This document shows positions 51,027 through 56,675 of a stretch of 64,000 bases of DNA, one piece after another. The notes below the pieces were generated by a model. The model was not told where the DNA came from. It ran no database searches and worked only from the letters and a program-made list of their open reading frames with translations. Within the stretch, counting starts at the first letter, position 1, and the number at the start of each line of letters is the position of its first letter. Made by a program: the position numbers and the translations under genes. The stretch spans positions 1,900,001 through 1,964,000 of the forward strand of contig NZ_CP012946.1 of assembly GCF_001402875.1 (NCBI RefSeq), in the 5' to 3' direction. The DNA comes from Blastochloris viridis. GTDB taxonomy: Bacteria; Pseudomonadota; Alphaproteobacteria; Rhizobiales; Xanthobacteraceae.

Positions 51027-52397
51027 TCAGCCTGAAGCCGGATCAGCCGCGCGCGGCAGCCGCACCACCGCCGTCATCGCCCCCGGCGCGGTCGGCCCAA
51101 GCGTCACCGCGCCGCCCCAGGCCTCGGCGAGATCGGCGGCGATGGCGAGGCCGAGCCCGGTGCCCGAGCCGGTCAGGTCGAGCCGGCCGCCGCGCTTCAG
51201 CGCCTCGGCCACCCGCTCTGCGGGGATGCCGGGGCCGTCGTCGACCACCTGCAGCACCACTGTGTCGCCCTCGGCCGCGCCGCGCACGCAGACCTCATCC
51301 TCGGCGTGGCGGGCAGCGTTCTCGACCAGATTGCCGAGGATCTCGGCAAGGTCCTCGGGCAGGATGCGGGCGGCCAGCTCGGCCGGCACGTCGTTCGACC
51401 AGCCCAGCCGGCTGCCGCGGGGGGTGCGGCGCACCACCCCGATCACCTGGTCGGCCACCGCCGCCAACTTGGCGCGCGCGGTGTTGGTGCTGGTGGTCTG
51501 GCGCGACCGCGCCAGCTCGCGCTCGACGTGCCGGCGCATGGTCTCGCCGATGGCGGCAAGGTCGGCGGCGATGGCGGTTTCGCCCTTGGCGCGCAGCCGG
51601 TTGACACCGCCGGCCAGCACCTGCAGCGGCGTCTTGAAGCCGTGGGCGAGATCGCCGGCGCGCGTCCGCGCCGCCTCGATCTGCTGCGCGCGCTGATCGA
51701 GCAGCGCGTCGACCTCGGCCGCAAGCGGGCGAACCTCATCGGGAAACGCAGTGCCGAGCCGCTCGGCGGCGCCGGTGCGAATAGCGGCGAGCCGGGTCCG
51801 CACCGCCTTGAGCGGCGCCAGCCCGACCGCGACCTGCGCCGCCGAGGCTGCCACCAGCACCAGCGCGATCACGCCCAAGAACGGCAATAGGTCGCCGGTG
51901 AAGGCCGCGGTGGCGGCGGCAAGGGCGCTGACATCCTGCGCCACCACCGCCCGCACCGCGCCGCCGCCGAGCCGTTGCGACAGCATCACCCGCCGTTCCA
52001 CCGCCAGCAGCTCGGCCCCGCCCGGCCCGCGGATGCGATGGTTGTGCCGCACACTTTCGGACAGCTCGTCCGCCGGCAGCGCCAGCTCGGCGTCCCACAG
52101 CGAGCGCGAGCGGTCGATCACGCCGGCCGGTTCGCCGGAAACCTGCCAGTAGAGGCCGCTCAGCGGCTTATCGAACCGGGGGTCGTCGGGCGGATCGATC
52201 ACCTGCAGCCGGCCATCGTCGCCGCGGTCGAGTTCCGCCACCACCCGGTCGACCAGGGTGGTCAGGTCGTCCGCCATCCGCCGCTCGACGTGGCGCTCGA
52301 ACAGCGCCGACAGCCCGAGCGCGGCCAAGCCCAGCGCCAGCAGAATCGACACCGCCCCGGCCGCGAACAGCCGCAGCCGCAGCGACCCGGCGATCAC
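51027..52397 (-). CDS. Two-component sensor histidine kinase
   Basis: The 456 residues begin with a membrane helix (about 8-32), a periplasmic domain to about 165, and a second helix (about 170-192). A HAMP-like linker follows. The dimer-phosphorylation box has His252 in DLAHGFKTPLQ, and the ATPase domain (about 340-450) has ENAARHAEDE and DDGPGIP, then GTGLGLAIA. The architecture is like PhoQ. The signal is unknown. Its start overlaps the response regulator stop by 4 bases (ATGA). Confidence 0.93.
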   Translation of the reverse strand: MIAGSLRLRLFAAGAVSILLALGLAALGLSALFERHVERRMADDLTTLVDRVVAELDRGDDGRLQVIDPPDDPRFDKPLSGLYWQVSGEPAGVIDRSRSLWDAELALPADELSESVRHNHRIRGPGGAELLAVERRVMLSQRLGGGAVRAVVAQDVSALAAATAAFTGDLLPFLGVIALVLVAASAAQVAVGLAPLKAVRTRLAAIRTGAAERLGTAFPDEVRPLAAEVDALLDQRAQQIEAARTRAGDLAHGFKTPLQVLAGGVNRLRAKGETAIAADLAAIGETMRRHVERELARSRQTTSTNTARAKLAAVADQVIGVVRRTPRGSRLGWSNDVPAELAARILPEDLAEILGNLVENAARHAEDEVCVRGAAEGDTVVLQVVDDGPGIPAERVAEALKRGGRLDLTGSGTGLGLAIAADLAEAWGGAVTLGPTAPGAMTAVVRLPRAADPASG

Positions 52398-53089
52398 GAC
52401 CCCGCCTCCGGCAGGCTGGTGTCCGGCGGCTTGGGGTCCGCCACCAGATAGCCGAAGCCGCGGCGGGTCTCGATGATGTCGGCGCCGAGCTTGCGGCGCA
52501 GCCGCATCACCAGCGCCTCAAGCGCGTTGGCCTCGCGGGCGTCGTCGTCGCCATAGAGCTGGCCGATCAGCTCGTGGGCCGGCACCACCCGGCCCTTCTG
52601 CAGCGCCAGATAGGCCACCAGCCGGTATTCCAGCGGCGACAGCGCCACCGGCACGCCGCCGACGCTGACGCGCATCTCGCGCGGGTCGACGGTGAGCGGG
52701 CCGGCCTCGATCACCGCCGCGCCGATGCCGGCGGAGCGGCGAATCAAGGCGCGGAAGCGCGCGACCAGCTCCTCCATCTGGAACGGCTTGGGCAAATAAT
52801 CGTCGGCGCCGGCATCGATGCCCTCGACCCGTTCCGCCCAGGTGCCGCGCGCGGTCAGCACCAGCACCGGCATGTGACGGCCGTTGCGGCGCCAACGCTT
52901 CAGCACCGCCAGCCCGTCGAGATGCGGCAGGCCGAGGTCGAGCACCACCAGGGCGTAATCCTCGGTGTCGCCCTTGAACCAGGCCTCCTCGCCGTCGCCA
53001 ACGATATCGACCACCGCGCCGGCCGCCGCCAGCGCCGCGGCGATGTCCTGCGCGATGCGCGGCTCGTCCTCGACCACCAGCACCCGCAT
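52394..53089 (-). CDS. OmpR-family response regulator
   Basis: The 231 residues have a receiver domain with phospho-acceptor Asp51 (VVLDLGLPHLDG), acidic pocket EDE (7-9) and Lys101. The C-terminal winged helix (about 130-220) has VALSPLEYRLVAYLALQ and RRGFGYLV. It should regulate its own operon and others once phosphorylated by the adjacent kinase. It is coupled to the PepSY gene upstream (one-base overlap, TGATG). Confidence 0.95.
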   Translation of the reverse strand: MRVLVVEDEPRIAQDIAAALAAAGAVVDIVGDGEEAWFKGDTEDYALVVLDLGLPHLDGLAVLKRWRRNGRHMPVLVLTARGTWAERVEGIDAGADDYLPKPFQMEELVARFRALIRRSAGIGAAVIEAGPLTVDPREMRVSVGGVPVALSPLEYRLVAYLALQKGRVVPAHELIGQLYGDDDAREANALEALVMRLRRKLGADIIETRRGFGYLVADPKPPDTSLPEAGS

Positions 53090-53418
53090 CAGTCGCCCTC
53101 GACGATCTTGCCGGTCAGGGCGTCGACCTTGGCCTCGACCAGCTGGCCGTCCGGCCGCAGCAGCTTGACCTCGTACTGAATCCGGCCGGAGCAGTGTTCC
53201 AACTCGATTTCGATGGCCTGGCCGCCCAGCTCCGATTCGACCATCGGCAGGATCTCGGTCAGCGGCCGCGCCCGGCCCTCGGCCAGCGCGCGGCGGGCGC
53301 AGTCGTGGTCGCCACGGCGATGGCCATGGCGGCGGGGTTCGTCGGCGGTGGCGCCGGCAACGCCGACGAGGCCGGCCAGCCCAGCCAGGACAACGGAGCG
53401 TCTGTCAAAACGTACCAT
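53089..53418 (-). CDS. Exported PepSY-domain protein
   Basis: The ATG at 53418 gives 109 residues with a signal peptide (RRSVVLAGLAGLVGVAGATADE) and a PepSY domain, ending GQLVEAKVDALTGKIVEGD. The mature part also has a His-rich stretch (RRHGHRRGDHDC) that might bind metal. Small PepSY proteins are often encoded with two-component systems and may act as periplasmic signal modulators. It is first in the operon and divergent from the LH1-gamma locus. Confidence 0.88.
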   Translation of the reverse strand: MVRFDRRSVVLAGLAGLVGVAGATADEPRRHGHRRGDHDCARRALAEGRARPLTEILPMVESELGGQAIEIELEHCSGRIQYEVKLLRPDGQLVEAKVDALTGKIVEGD

Positions 53419-53521
53419 GGCCGCAGTTGATACCCATTCGCCTGACGACGCCCTGACGCGCCGGCCGGCCACCATGCCTTGGCGATCCTGCATGGCTGCT
53501 CACGGATCCGTGAACGAGCCA

Positions 53522-53549
53522 TTGCATTCCCGGACAGAACCGGTAATCT
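53522..53549 (+). promoter_or_regulatory. Promoter of LH1-gamma gene 1
   Basis: TTGCAT (53522-53527), 16 bp, then TAATCT (53544-53549) fit a sigma-70 type promoter. The leader to the ATG is about 150 nt. The same pair and spacing precede genes 2 and 3, which supports the call. Confidence 0.65.
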
Positions 53550-53707
53550 GAAGCGGCTCGGAGATGTGACGCCATTTTCCAGCGAGATTCGACGTCACCG
53601 CAGCCCCTACCGGTGGCGCCAGAATAGACAGCAAGCAATTCGCAAGAATTGCCTTTGGTGTCTGGAAAGTTGTGTGCATTTCGAGACCCGTCATGAGAGG
53701 ACCAACG

Positions 53708-53881
53708 ATGAAACTTTCAGCTATTCTTGGGGCGCTTTCTGTCGTCCTCACCTCGACCATCGCTTCGGCTTACTTCGCCGCTGATGGCTCGGTCGTTCCG
53801 AGCATCTCCGATTGGAACCTGTGGGTTCCGCTCGGCATCCTCGGCATCCCGACCATCTGGATTGCGCTGACCTATCGTTGA
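53708..53881 (+). CDS. Light-harvesting 1 (B1015) gamma subunit, copy 1
   Basis: The ATG at 53708 follows GAGAGGACC. The 57-residue precursor has a 21-residue presequence ([21 protein letters not shown]) with an A-x-A cleavage site. Cleavage leaves 36 residues starting YFAADGSVV, with one membrane helix ([19 protein letters not shown]) and the end TYR. The LH1-gamma polypeptide of Blastochloris is known to be 36 residues; in the B. viridis RC-LH1 structure gamma helices pack outside the alpha/beta ring, tighten it and help the 1015-nm absorption. Encoded with its own promoter and hairpin, away from puf genes. Copy 2 has an identical mature part. Confidence 0.92.
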
Positions 53882-53889
53882 TAGCAGCA

Positions 53890-53923
53890 GGCTAGGCCCC
53901 GGTCGGCTGGCCGGGGCCTAGCC
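53890..53923 (+). terminator. GC-rich hairpin after LH1-gamma gene 1
   Basis: GGCTAGGCCCCGG pairs perfectly with CCGGGGCCTAGCC across an 8-nt loop, 8 bp after the stop. No T-run follows. A strong stem without U-tract suits an mRNA-stabilising 3' end. Confidence 0.65.
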
Positions 53924-54674
53924 ACGCTCCCGATCATACTGTCGCGCCCGCGGCAAACGGGGAACAGCGGTGAGCCGGAGCCGGCGTTGAGCCGCAACAT
54001 GCTGCGTGATCGGCTGGGACGGCAGCACCGCCATCGACCAGATGCCGGAGCGTAACCCGAGATCGGATGCCGGTACGTAAGCTGGCAAAAGCTGATCGCC
54101 GCCGGTTGCACCGCGACATCGCACAACGACCTGCCAAATCGCAACAGCTCAGAATTCGGACGCCGCGCGAACGCGGTGGGGTCGGATCGCGACATGTCGG
54201 CGCCAAAGCGGGTCCAGGCCATCCGGATCCAGCGCCAGAGTCGCCCAGGTTTCTCCCAAATCAGCAGCAGACGTGGGTCCCCTCGCCGACAGCGTCGACG
54301 GAGCGTACGCGCGGTGACATCAACCGCGGGTCGGCCAGCGGCAACGGTGCGGCCGATGGCGTTACCGTTGGGGTTACGCCGCTACCCGCGCATGTACCGG
54401 CGAGCCGCTATCTCGATCGAGTCTTTTCGGCGATTCCGCCCAGGATCGCGCCGCGGCCTTGCCTGCTTCGACAATAGTTCGCCCCGCGCCTATTCCTGCG
54501 TGCACCGCCTGCCGTGCAAGTACTTAGTTGCTGGTACGTAGCGGCGTGGTCACGCCGGCGCGGTTGCTTAAACGTCCGCAGCAGTTGCACCGCAATCGGC
54601 CGCGGCTTCCTCCGCCCGTGCTTACCGCCGCGTCCGACTTGCCGTGTCATGCTTTGCGACATCGAACCATACCG
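53924..54674. other. 751 bp between LH1-gamma genes 1 and 2, no supported gene
   Basis: The open frames here are arginine/proline-rich shadows without ribosome sites. No further gamma copy or known gene is visible. The spacer may be the remains of sequence duplicated with the gamma unit. Confidence 0.5.
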
Positions 54675-54702
54675 TTGCATTCGCGGCCGGACTCGTTACT
54701 CT
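54675..54702 (+). promoter_or_regulatory. Promoter of LH1-gamma gene 2
   Basis: TTGCAT (54675-54680), 16 bp, TACTCT (54697-54702). The surroundings match gene 1, including a downstream GGCTCGGA and TTTTCC. The leader is about 160 nt. Confidence 0.65.
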
Positions 54703-54867
54703 TGCCTGGCTCGGAGGTGAGGCATCCTTTTCCAACATCGTCGGCGATGACAGCGCTGCCCCGATCGCTGCCATGCGGACGAGCCAACGGCCAGGGGTAA
54801 CCACGGCCGGCAGGTGGGGCGGAAATTCGAAGTCTTCATTCTGGGCCCCTTCATGAGAGGACCAACG

Positions 54868-55041
54868 ATGAAACTGTCAGCTGTTATTGGGGCGCTTACT
54901 GTCGTCCTGTCGTCGACGCTCGCTTCTGCTTATTTCGCCGCCGATGGCTCGGTCGTTCCGAGCATCTCCGATTGGAACCTGTGGGTTCCGCTCGGCATCC
55001 TCGGCATCCCGACCATCTGGATCGCGCTGACCTACCGTTGA
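54868..55041 (+). CDS. Light-harvesting 1 (B1015) gamma subunit, copy 2
   Basis: The ATG at 54868 follows the same GAGAGGACCAACG leader as copy 1. The 57-residue precursor differs from copy 1 only in the presequence ([21 protein letters not shown]). The 36-residue mature part is identical to copy 1. The many exact matches in the coding DNA point to a fairly recent duplication or gene conversion. It has its own promoter and two downstream hairpins. Identical products suggest a dosage role: about 16 gamma per reaction centre are needed in the known structure. Confidence 0.92.
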
Positions 55042-55055
55042 GCGCGTGACAGATC

Positions 55056-55080
55056 GGCCCCGTTTTACTTAAACGGGGCC
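55056..55080 (+). terminator. Hairpin after LH1-gamma gene 2
   Basis: GGCCCCGTTT pairs with AAACGGGGCC across a 5-nt loop, 14 bp after the stop. No T-run follows. Confidence 0.65.
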
Positions 55081-55148
55081 TGAGCGAACCTTGAGTCGAG
55101 GTCGCCGCAGTGCGGCTCGACGTAAGGACGCCAAGCCTGAGGCGAACG

Positions 55149-55189
55149 CAGGATTTCCGGACCCGCTCACGCGACGTTCGGAAATCCTG
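55149..55189 (+). terminator. Second hairpin after LH1-gamma gene 2, with T-rich tail
   Basis: CAGGATTTCCG pairs with CGGAAATCCTG across a 19-nt loop and is followed by TTTCGTTTT. The same stem recurs after gene 3, so it is a conserved part of the unit and probably the true terminator. Confidence 0.6.
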
Positions 55190-55750
55190 TTTCGTTTTGG
55201 CGGCAGGTTTGTCGCGACTCGGACTCCGTGGGCGTGCGGCGTGGTGCAGGGTTTCCGCGGCACATCACGTCGTTTCGAGCGTGCCTTGCCGGCGGCGAGG
55301 GGCAGCGAGTCGCGCCTCCATCCAATGTCCCGTTGCAGTTACCGCCGATCGCGGCGAGCCGGTACGCTTCGCATTCGAGGTCCTGATCGGCTGGGTTTGC
55401 GATTCGCACGCTCTCGGCAAAAGCGAAGGTCGTCTTCGTAAAGTTTTTATAAATCAATGACTTATAGCGACCGCCGGTGCAATCAGATTGCCGAATGCGT
55501 TCGTATCCGGTTTACCTTATTCGCAGTCGGCTGCACCCGCTGGCCAGACCGCCAGCCACGCACCGCCCCCGCGCCGATCGCGGGACCGGAACGGAACGAC
55601 CGGAGGGCCGCCGATCTTGGCAGCCGCCTCGGCGCCAGCCCACGCCGGCGGCGCCCGCCGCCAGACGGGCCTTGGCCGACTCCCCGCCAGCGCCGTTGTT
55701 GGGCTCCGCAAGTTGGCATTTCCTCGTAACACGAAGACGTGATCGAGCCA
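55190..55750. other. 561 bp between LH1-gamma genes 2 and 3, no supported gene
   Basis: It holds no recognisable gene. The minus-strand and plus-strand open frames are low-support shadows. The only conserved parts are the flanking hairpin and the promoter of gene 3. Confidence 0.5.
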
Positions 55751-55778
55751 TTGCATTCACGGCCAGAAACGCTACTGT
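55751..55778 (+). promoter_or_regulatory. Promoter of LH1-gamma gene 3
   Basis: TTGCAT (55751-55756), 16 bp, TACTGT (55773-55778), preceded by GAGCCA as at gene 1. The leader is about 140 nt. Confidence 0.65.
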
Positions 55779-55924
55779 CGCCCCCGCTCGGACATGCACT
55801 GACTTTTCCGCTGCATTCGTAATGACGCCGCTGCCCCGATCGGCGCCACGCGGATGACGAAACCCCACACGCGGGTTTCGGGGAAACGATGCGCGCAATC
55901 CTGGGCTCTTTTGGAGGACCAAAG

Positions 55925-56098
55925 ATGAAACTTTCGGCTGTTCTTGGGGCGCTCTCGGTCGTCCTGTCTTCGACGCTCGCTTCCGCCTACTTCGCCGCTG
56001 ACGGCTCGGTCGTTCCGAGCATCTCCGATTGGAACCTGTGGGTTCCGCTCGGCATCCTCGGCATCCCGACGATCTGGATCGCGCTGGTCTATCGTTGA
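55925..56098 (+). CDS. Light-harvesting 1 (B1015) gamma subunit, copy 3 (Val variant)
   Basis: The ATG at 55925 follows GGAGGACCAAAG, a better ribosome site than the other copies. The 57-residue precursor has presequence [21 protein letters not shown]. The mature part equals copies 1 and 2 except that the C-terminal ALTYR is ALVYR. It encodes a full-length gamma subunit and is not a pseudogene. The Val/Thr change lies near the end of the helix and could be tested for incorporation into the ring. Two hairpins follow, as with gene 2. Confidence 0.9.
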
Positions 56099-56112
56099 GA
56101 ATTGTCGGGTCC

Positions 56113-56136
56113 GGCCCCTATCGTCCGATAGGGGCC
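56113..56136 (+). terminator. Hairpin after LH1-gamma gene 3
   Basis: GGCCCCTAT pairs with ATAGGGGCC across CGTCCG, 14 bp after the stop. No T-run follows. Confidence 0.6.
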
Positions 56137-56200
56137 GCGGCACTTCTTGCGGATCGGGCCTTGCGCTCGATGTGATGGATTTGCCGAACCACGATGACTG

Positions 56201-56246
56201 CAGGATTTCCGAAATCTGCCGGCGTTTGGCGGGAGCGGAAATCCTG
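56201..56246 (+). terminator. Second hairpin after LH1-gamma gene 3
   Basis: CAGGATTTCCG pairs with CGGAAATCCTG across a 24-nt loop. It is the same stem as after gene 2, at a similar distance from the stop. Confidence 0.55.
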
Positions 56247-56675
56247 CTATCGTTTGAGATTGCTGTCGCTTGACCCTCATGCGGTCGCGACGGGTTAATT
56301 TGGCGAGCTGACAGCCAGCAACCGTAAGCCAGAGCGGGTCGTTTCGTTCGGAAGCGGCACAGTATCGGCGTACCGGAGTTCGACTGCTCTCAGCGTTGTG
56401 CCAGTTATATTGTCAGCATAGCGGTTACACGCCGCCTGTACCGCGAACGCCCGAACGCCTTCGATTACGGCGGCGAGCTGATGTGCAGGCGCTGCGTTAT
56501 ATCGCCCCGAAATGCAGCCGAGTCCCAGACCAGAGACGATGATCTCGCGCGCGCTCGGCGATGCGATCGCCGGCGATACCCTCAACACAGCCCGCGCGGG
56601 TCGCCTTCGTCCGCGCGGAGGAACCCGCTGCAGCCGTCACCGTTAGCCTGAGACAACGGGCGGATGGAGGCACCG
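56247..56675. other. 429 bp with no confidently supported gene
   Basis: A minus-strand frame at 56295-56588 (97 codons) exists but has no recognised domain or ribosome site. It may be chance or a decayed gene. The ribosome site of the next gene (GGAGG, 56666-56670) lies at the right end. Confidence 0.45.

What the first reader, a model, noticed from the sequence alone, without database searches (positions are those of the whole stretch)
53500..56250. Three tandem transcription units for the LH1 gamma subunit, away from the puf genes
Each of the three genes encodes a 57-residue precursor ending in the same 36-residue gamma-like protein. Two mature products are identical and the third has one change. 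Gamma is known only from the Blastochloris-type LH1 ring and is needed at about 16 per complex, so tandem copies look like a dosage solution. The genes are about 1.1 kb apart, each with its own promoter and terminator, and are not a polycistron.
Basis: partly seen in the sequence, partly recalled or inferred. Interest (0 to 1): 0.9.

Follow-up and report, generated by a model that had tools for sequence, protein, structure and literature searches.

The report
Three known light-harvesting gamma gene units
This is the already published cluster of three near-identical genes that let a purple bacterium harvest light beyond 1000 nm; the small addition here is sequence evidence that each copy carries its own conserved control region and end hairpin.

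Summary
Three genes (53708-53881, 54868-55041, 55925-56098, +) encode 57-residue precursors. Copies 1 and 2 have identical 36-residue mature parts; copy 3 has Thr34Val. The genome is, by inference, Blastochloris viridis. The mature sequence matches the solved LH1 gamma chain (6ET5), and the cluster lies 1.30 Mb from pufBA. All of this is published (PMC9788563): cluster, location, Thr:Val 2:1 in purified protein, deletion phenotype.

Two points of interpretation change. Rhodopila globiformis has a structural analogue, so 'only Blastochloris-type' is out of date. Dosage is not required: B. tepida and B. sulfoviridis have two clustered genes at the same site, and in 9J2F (tepida sequences) one gene accounts for 15 gamma chains and the other for one.

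Comparison favours separate units over one polycistron. A block of about 115 nt precedes each of the 7 clustered gamma genes of three species and was found nowhere else in those genomes; it holds a covarying hairpin. Strong 3' hairpins follow every gene, but copy 1 lacks a T-run and the generic promoter and terminator scans list none of these elements. Mature parts of the paralogues seem to exchange sequence by gene conversion. No transcript data were available.

The parts
53519..53632 (+). Conserved promoter/leader block of gamma copy 1 (TTGCAT-N16-TAATCT core, then a covarying hairpin)
53708..53881 (+). LH1 gamma gene copy 1 (57-aa precursor; mature 36 aa, Thr34)
   Evidence: PDB matches
53890..53923 (+). 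GGCCCC-type hairpin just after the stop of copy 1, no T-run (stretch 53882-53940 folds at -37.7 kcal/mol, z -4.7)
54672..54787 (+). Conserved promoter/leader block of gamma copy 2
   Evidence: (1 mismatch)
54868..55041 (+). LH1 gamma gene copy 2 (mature part identical to copy 1)
55056..55080 (+). GGCCCC-type hairpin after copy 2
   Evidence: z -3.4
55149..55200 (+). CAGGATTTCCG...CGGAAATCCTG hairpin with T-rich tail: likely terminator of copy 2; related hairpins follow the tepida and sulfoviridis gamma genes
   Evidence: (z -6.0)
55748..55862 (+). Conserved promoter/leader block of gamma copy 3
55925..56098 (+). LH1 gamma gene copy 3 (mature Val34)
56112..56137 (+). GGCCCC-type hairpin after copy 3
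   Evidence: z -4.0
56201..56258 (+). CAGGATTTCCG...CGGAAATCCTG hairpin with a weak T tail: likely terminator of copy 3
   Evidence: (z -4.9)

Best explanation
These are the three clustered LH1 gamma genes of Blastochloris viridis. Each makes a precursor whose first 21 residues are a signal peptide; the 36-residue single-helix product packs between beta chains outside the LH1 ring (16 per 17 alpha-beta pairs) and shifts absorption past 1000 nm (published). Inferred here: each gene is its own small transcription unit, with a shared kind of promoter and 5' leader hairpin, and a 3' hairpin that protects and/or ends a short mRNA. The array probably descends from a two-unit array at the same site; in viridis it gained a unit and its mature parts were kept alike by gene conversion. 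Equal output of three such units would give the published Thr:Val ratio of 2:1.
For: Identity: (9J2F and 6ET5 gamma chains). Published function, cluster and 2:1 ratio: PMC9788563. Unit structure: a 27-nt pattern drawn from the block is found at 7 places in three genomes, one per clustered gamma gene, and at 0 in the reversed-pattern control. A covariance model hits the same 7 at 100.4-129.9 bits, next best 15.9 bits. Paralogue identity is 0.59-0.76 in windows from -202 to -84 against 0.23-0.49 further upstream. Leader hairpin of 14 pairs: 6 pairs change on both sides and stay paired, 0 of 500 shuffles as high. The 9 3' stretches that I picked by eye all fold better than all 200 of their shuffles. 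Gene conversion: 13 of 20 paralogue-split sites lie in the signal part, 6 of 6 species-specific sites in the mature part, Fisher p 0.015.
Against: No RNA data. The promoter core is a poor sigma-70 match; the generic scan lists no promoter before these genes and none of these hairpins among its 4 terminator-like sites. Copy 1 lacks a T-run after its hairpin, so read-through into copy 2 is possible. The 5 leaders folded singly (of 7) are not clearly better than shuffles (z -1.59 to +0.39). Pattern, model and hairpin were drawn from the 7 sites themselves, so only absence elsewhere is a test, and only 150 of about 2,000 first-look candidates per genome were scored. Sliding the hairpin's partner strand by +3 still gives 4 doubly changed pairs, though only 44.6% of cells pair. 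PMC9788563 says the three genes are 'transcribed together'. After re-reading (terminator scan) I lowered this from 0.80 to 0.75.
Confidence: 0.75

Rival explanations
1. Polycistron or joint transcription: one promoter before copy 1 serves all three genes, as 'transcribed together' in PMC9788563 could be read.
For: Same strand; the 2:1 Thr:Val ratio (PMC9788563); no T-run after copy 1; generic scan lists no separate promoters.
Against: Spacers of about 1 kb; the central part of the spacer does not align even between sulfoviridis and tepida. A conserved block lies before every gene and hairpins follow every gene.
Confidence: 0.15
2. Dosage solution: three copies are needed to supply about 16 gamma per complex while alpha and beta come from one operon.
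For: Copies 1 and 2 make identical mature products; the published 2:1 ratio implies that Thr and Val genes are both used.
Against: B. tepida and B. sulfoviridis have one canonical and one divergent clustered gene. In 9J2F the canonical tepida sequence accounts for 15 chains, so three copies are not required.
Confidence: 0.3
3. Redundancy: several paralogues guard against assembling LH1 without gamma, as proposed in PMC9788563.
For: Loss of gamma blue-shifts the complex and slows growth under halogen light.
Against: Redundant copies would be expected to drift; here the mature parts stay alike. Not tested against dosage.
Confidence: 0.3
4. Position-specific paralogues: clustered copies fill different ring positions, as the 15:1 mix in 9J2F suggests for tepida.
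For: 9J2F chain counts; divergent first gene in tepida and sulfoviridis.
Against: The viridis mature products differ by one residue at most; 6ET5 lists one gamma sequence in 16 chains.
Confidence: 0.08

Closest known systems
LH1 gamma genes LH1gamma1-3 of Blastochloris viridis (PMC9788563)
   Same: Same number of clustered genes, same T/V difference, same distance from the photosynthesis gene cluster; by inference the same locus.
   Different: The paper describes the genes as transcribed together; the cis elements reported here are not in the passages and sections that I read.
Two-gene gamma array of Blastochloris tepida and B. sulfoviridis
   Same: Same chromosomal site (between a PepSY/two-component block and a flavin reductase gene), same leader block, related GGATTTCC hairpins downstream.
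   Different: One canonical and one divergent gene instead of three near-identical ones; no GGCCCC hairpin after the stop.
Gamma-like polypeptide of Rhodopila globiformis LH1 (PMC9640540)
   Same: Single helix between beta chains with the opposite orientation, several per ring, gene far from puf (passages).
   Different: 22 residues with formylated N-terminal Met, 11 copies, BChl a organism, low sequence similarity (passages).
Hairpin after pufBA
   Same: A strong hairpin follows the second LH1 gene of the puf pair in this genome too (L036:1664-1790, z -4.3).
   Different: Unrelated sequence, and within an operon rather than at the end of one; the role of such hairpins in protecting mRNA is recalled from Rhodobacter work, not from a call.

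Membership tests
Blastochloris LH1 gamma polypeptide | Mature sequence matches a gamma chain solved in an LH1 ring | tested here: met
   6ET5 gamma (24 listed residues) identical to copies 1 and 2, one change from copy 3; 9J2F chains at E 1e-28
Blastochloris LH1 gamma polypeptide | 36-residue mature product with Thr or Val at position 34 | tested here: met
   Translations; published peptide data as told in PMC9788563
Blastochloris LH1 gamma polypeptide | N-terminal signal cleaved before YFAADG | tested here: inconclusive
   An A-S-A motif precedes Tyr in all three; cleavage follows only from the published mature length
Blastochloris LH1 gamma polypeptide | Genes distant from the photosynthesis gene cluster | tested here: met
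   pufBA at 657264-657601, cluster at 1953708-1956098
Blastochloris LH1 gamma polypeptide | Incorporation into LH1 and red shift of absorption | not testable with these tools
   Published deletion work, PMC9788563
Independent (monocistronic) transcription unit | Own promoter | tested here: inconclusive
   Conserved block 3 of 3 in viridis, 7 of 7 clustered genes in the genus, but no start site mapped and no sigma-70 consensus hit
Independent (monocistronic) transcription unit | Own terminator | tested here: inconclusive
   Hairpin with T-rich tail for copy 2, weak tail for copy 3, no T-run for copy 1; not listed by the generic scan
Rhodopila-type gamma-like polypeptide | 22-residue protein that keeps its initiator Met | tested here: not met
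   57-aa precursors here

The most novel reading that the evidence does not exclude
Each gamma gene is a self-contained expression cassette with a dedicated promoter plus structured leader (about 115 nt) found only before clustered gamma genes, so gamma supply is set independently of puf, probably by a gamma-specific regulator or leader-binding factor. Meanwhile gene conversion shuffles the mature domains (including an Ala/Trp swap between the two cluster genes of tepida and sulfoviridis) under fixed regulatory and signal parts, as a way to retune the ring.
Probability: 0.35. Interest if true: 0.5.

Novelty: already known. Interest (0 to 1): 0.27.

Why it matters
Gamma pushes this photosystem past 1000 nm, described in PMC9788563 as the current low-energy limit of photosynthesis. 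How a cell supplies 16 gamma per complex from genes 1.3 Mb away from pufBA is open. The leader block and hairpins give concrete sites to map and mutate, and the two-gene relatives show that gene number alone does not set stoichiometry.

Tried and rejected
Gamma relatives elsewhere. The protein search gave 11 hits from 11 candidates, 72-100% identical; two bear Blastochloris names, one (P0010) a 'Rhodospirillales' MAG label, most no name. In genome contigs 19 stretches matched a pattern and 4 loci were confirmed: 2 from B. sulfoviridis and 2 that I judge chance, a 15-residue stretch inside other, longer proteins. In 391 family genomes the matches were the 3 Blastochloris genomes and one frame with two stops (G339, E 0.004). 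No relative in viral contigs or plasmids.

Leader outside the genus. The model gave 6 hits at E <= 0.01 in the 59 non-Blastochloris genomes of a 61-genome draw, at 20-32 bits (B. tepida was not in that draw). The best two (L059, L060) are near-identical to each other over about 60 nt and lie before unrelated genes. I take all six as chance or shared repeats: at such scores a few are expected over that much sequence (my estimate), and the model's E-values are rough. This is a judgement, not a test.

Rfam gave one match below its gathering score (sbcD, E 0.42). Pfam has no match for gamma. A shorter core has 40 matches at up to 2 mismatches in the viridis genome, the three gamma sites included, against 8 for the reversed control, so the short core alone is not specific.

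The 201-column consensus fold suggested a further long helix; not pursued. Not run: structure prediction and fold search, NCBIfam, PHROGs, PADLOC.

Reading done. PMC9788563: passages, section 3, part 1 of 2 of section 10. PMC10212510: part 1 of 3. PMC9640540, PMC10214105, PMC7193936: passages. PMC4559743 and PMC4722257: whole text. The papers behind 6ET5 and 9J2F and the original peptide paper (reference 22 of PMC9788563): not seen. That I know of no print description of these cis elements rests on the listings only.

Dropped rows. One search used 19 of 21 pairs (two near-identical orthologue pairs left out). One search used 5 of 7 clustered genes (the two divergent ones have a one-codon gap), and its Fisher test left out 9 sites where only tepida and sulfoviridis differ and 2 'other' sites. 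One search folded 5 of 7 leaders. The hairpin alignment holds 6 of 7 genes (viridis copy 1 lacks that element). The stretches were picked by eye as hairpin-like.
Full report
What is there. The window is G000:C1:1900001-1964000 of a 3,724,841-base single-contig genome. Its gamma genes and size fit Blastochloris viridis DSM133 (3,723,225 bp in PMC4722257, whole text); the tools name no organism for G000, so the species is inferred. Three genes at 53708-53881, 54868-55041 and 55925-56098 encode 57-residue precursors. Copies 1 and 2 share an identical 36-residue mature part, and copy 3 has Val for Thr at mature position 34. The best solved matches are the gamma chains of 9J2F and 6ET5; the 24 residues listed for 6ET5 are identical to copies 1 and 2. 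A fourth, 57%-identical copy lies at 3329695-3329862 minus, and pufBA at 657264-657601, 1.30 Mb from the cluster.

What is already known. PMC9788563 (passages; section 3; part 1 of section 10) reports four gamma genes in B. viridis, three clustered and near-identical, away from the photosynthesis gene cluster. It cites Thr and Val at position 34 in a 2:1 ratio in the isolated protein, and reports deletion of the three clustered genes and then of all four. Without gamma, RC-LH1 assembled under white light absorbs at 972 nm in cells, against 1018 nm in the wild type; under halogen light LH1 was not assembled. The finding as given is therefore in print. PMC9640540 (passages) also states that the viridis gamma genes are clustered, and describes a gamma-like polypeptide in 11 copies in the BChl a organism Rhodopila globiformis, so 'known only from Blastochloris-type LH1' needs a qualifier.

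Transcription units. I compared the seven clustered gamma genes of the three genomes held for the genus (3 in viridis, 2 each in G001 = sulfoviridis and G002 = tepida). Upstream identity between paralogues (19 of 21 pairs) is 0.23-0.49 in 25-column windows from about -450 to -190, apart from one mostly gapped window at the far end (0.06). It rises to 0.59-0.76 in windows from -202 to -84 and falls to 0.31-0.50 nearer the ATG. The block runs from 177-196 to 63-81 nt before the ATG (coordinates). It opens with CC(A/G)TTGCATTC and has a TA...T hexamer 16 nt after TTGCAT. As -35/-10 hexamers these are weak sigma-70 matches, and the generic scan lists no promoter before these genes. A pattern of the first 27 nt, up to 2 mismatches allowed, occurs 7 times in the three genomes (six exact, viridis copy 2 with one mismatch), once before each clustered gamma gene, and 0 times in the reversed control. 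A covariance model of the whole block finds the same 7 at 100.4 to 129.9 bits and nothing else above 15.9 bits, with 150 of about 2,000 first-look candidates per genome scored. No hit lies before the fourth gamma gene or puf. A shorter core alone is not specific.

Leader hairpin. Within the block a two-part helix of 14 pairs, taken from the consensus fold, encloses the loop C(A/U)GCCCC(G/U)A(C/U). On alignment A4, 92.6% of cells pair (shuffled mean 84.4). Six pairs change on both sides and stay paired (shuffled mean 2.2, 0 of 500 as high). With the partner strand slid by 1 to 3 columns, 25.5-44.6% of cells pair, with up to 4 doubly changed pairs at +3. The inner helix alone gives 3 such pairs, 4 of 500 shuffles as high. 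Against this, the 5 leaders folded singly do not clearly beat their shuffles (z -1.59 to +0.39), seven related sequences are few, and the structure was derived from the same alignment. I rate the hairpin likely, not shown.

Ends. Each viridis gene is followed 8-14 nt after its stop codon by a GGCCCC...GGGGCC hairpin whose tip differs between copies while pairing is kept. Copies 2 and 3 and the four tepida and sulfoviridis genes are followed, starting about 88-107 nt after the stop, by a hairpin with arms of the kind GCAGGATTTCC...GGAAATCCTGC. Its tail is T-rich after the two canonical genes and copy 2, weak after copy 3, and without a T-run after the two divergent genes, where a second hairpin ending in TTTTT follows. 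All 9 stretches folded, picked by eye, beat all 200 of their shuffles (z -3.36 to -8.10). The exact inverted repeat occurs at 3 places in the three genomes, after viridis copies 2 and 3 and the tepida canonical gene. The generic scan's 4 terminator-like sites (shuffled mean 2.8) include none of these. Copy 1 has the first hairpin only and no T-run, so read-through from copy 1 cannot be excluded. The puf pair in this genome is followed by a comparable hairpin; the mRNA-protecting role of such hairpins is recalled from Rhodobacter.

Origin. The cluster sits at one site in all three species, between a two-component/PepSY block and a flavin reductase gene. Copy 2 aligns over leader, gene and terminator region with the tepida canonical gene (74% over 538 columns). 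Copy 1 is first in the array like the divergent gene, and its leader aligns with that of the sulfoviridis divergent gene. Copy 3 aligns with the canonical gene again. The simplest reading is an ancestral pair plus one duplication in viridis; loss of a third unit in the others is not excluded. In the signal-peptide part copy 2 is closer to the tepida canonical gene (5 of 63 differences) than to copies 1 and 3 (10 and 9). In the last 93 nt the viridis copies differ from each other by 2-4 and from tepida by 11-12. Paralogue-split and species-specific sites divide accordingly (13:7 against 0:6 between signal and mature part, p 0.015). This is the pattern expected from gene conversion of the mature part. 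The p value is modest, and selection on a highly expressed protein could contribute.

Dosage. The two cluster genes of tepida encode exactly the two gamma sequences of 9J2F, 15 chains of one and one of the other. The organism of 9J2F was not printed; I infer it from sequence identity. One gene can therefore supply 15 gamma per ring, so three copies in viridis are not required for stoichiometry. The published 2:1 ratio does fit equal use of all three.

Range. Gamma was found only in Blastochloris-like sequences: 11 of 11 hits of the protein search, 2 of 4 confirmed loci of genome contigs, the other 2 judged chance, and 3 of 391 family genomes plus one weak frame with stops. Viral contigs and plasmids gave none.

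Verdict. The unit structure supported by comparison and the gene-conversion pattern are the only additions.

Noticed in passing
L006 and L007 at 1501-1671, L008 and L009 at 1501-1668: The residue after S-I-T-D is Ala in the tepida canonical and sulfoviridis divergent gamma, but Trp in the tepida divergent and sulfoviridis canonical gamma: a swap between the two cluster genes, while the first 63 nt are identical between orthologues.
   Followed up: partly
L015:7967-10384: In tepida an 805-aa gene with RTX repeats and M10/M12-type metallopeptidase matches lies between the gamma pair and the flavin reductase gene; the viridis window shows no DNA match to it at that place.
   Followed up: partly
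window 51027-53493 (-): Histidine kinase, response regulator and PepSY genes run away from the gamma cluster and keep this position in all three species; whether they act on gamma is unknown.
   Followed up: partly
P0010: A gamma protein with a 'Rhodospirillales bacterium' MAG label is a mosaic: canonical signal part with a divergent-type mature start. Possibly a mislabelled Blastochloris relative, or a transfer.
   Followed up: no
L005, L012, L013 at 1501-1650: A 38%-identical stretch (E 0.04-0.06) recurs in a 318-334-residue open frame in all three genomes; probably unrelated.
   Followed up: no
L059:26-90 and L060:1606-1540: Two genomes of different genera in the family share a near-identical ~60-nt stretch resembling the gamma leader at 26-32 bits, before unrelated genes; looks like a shared repeat.
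   Followed up: partly
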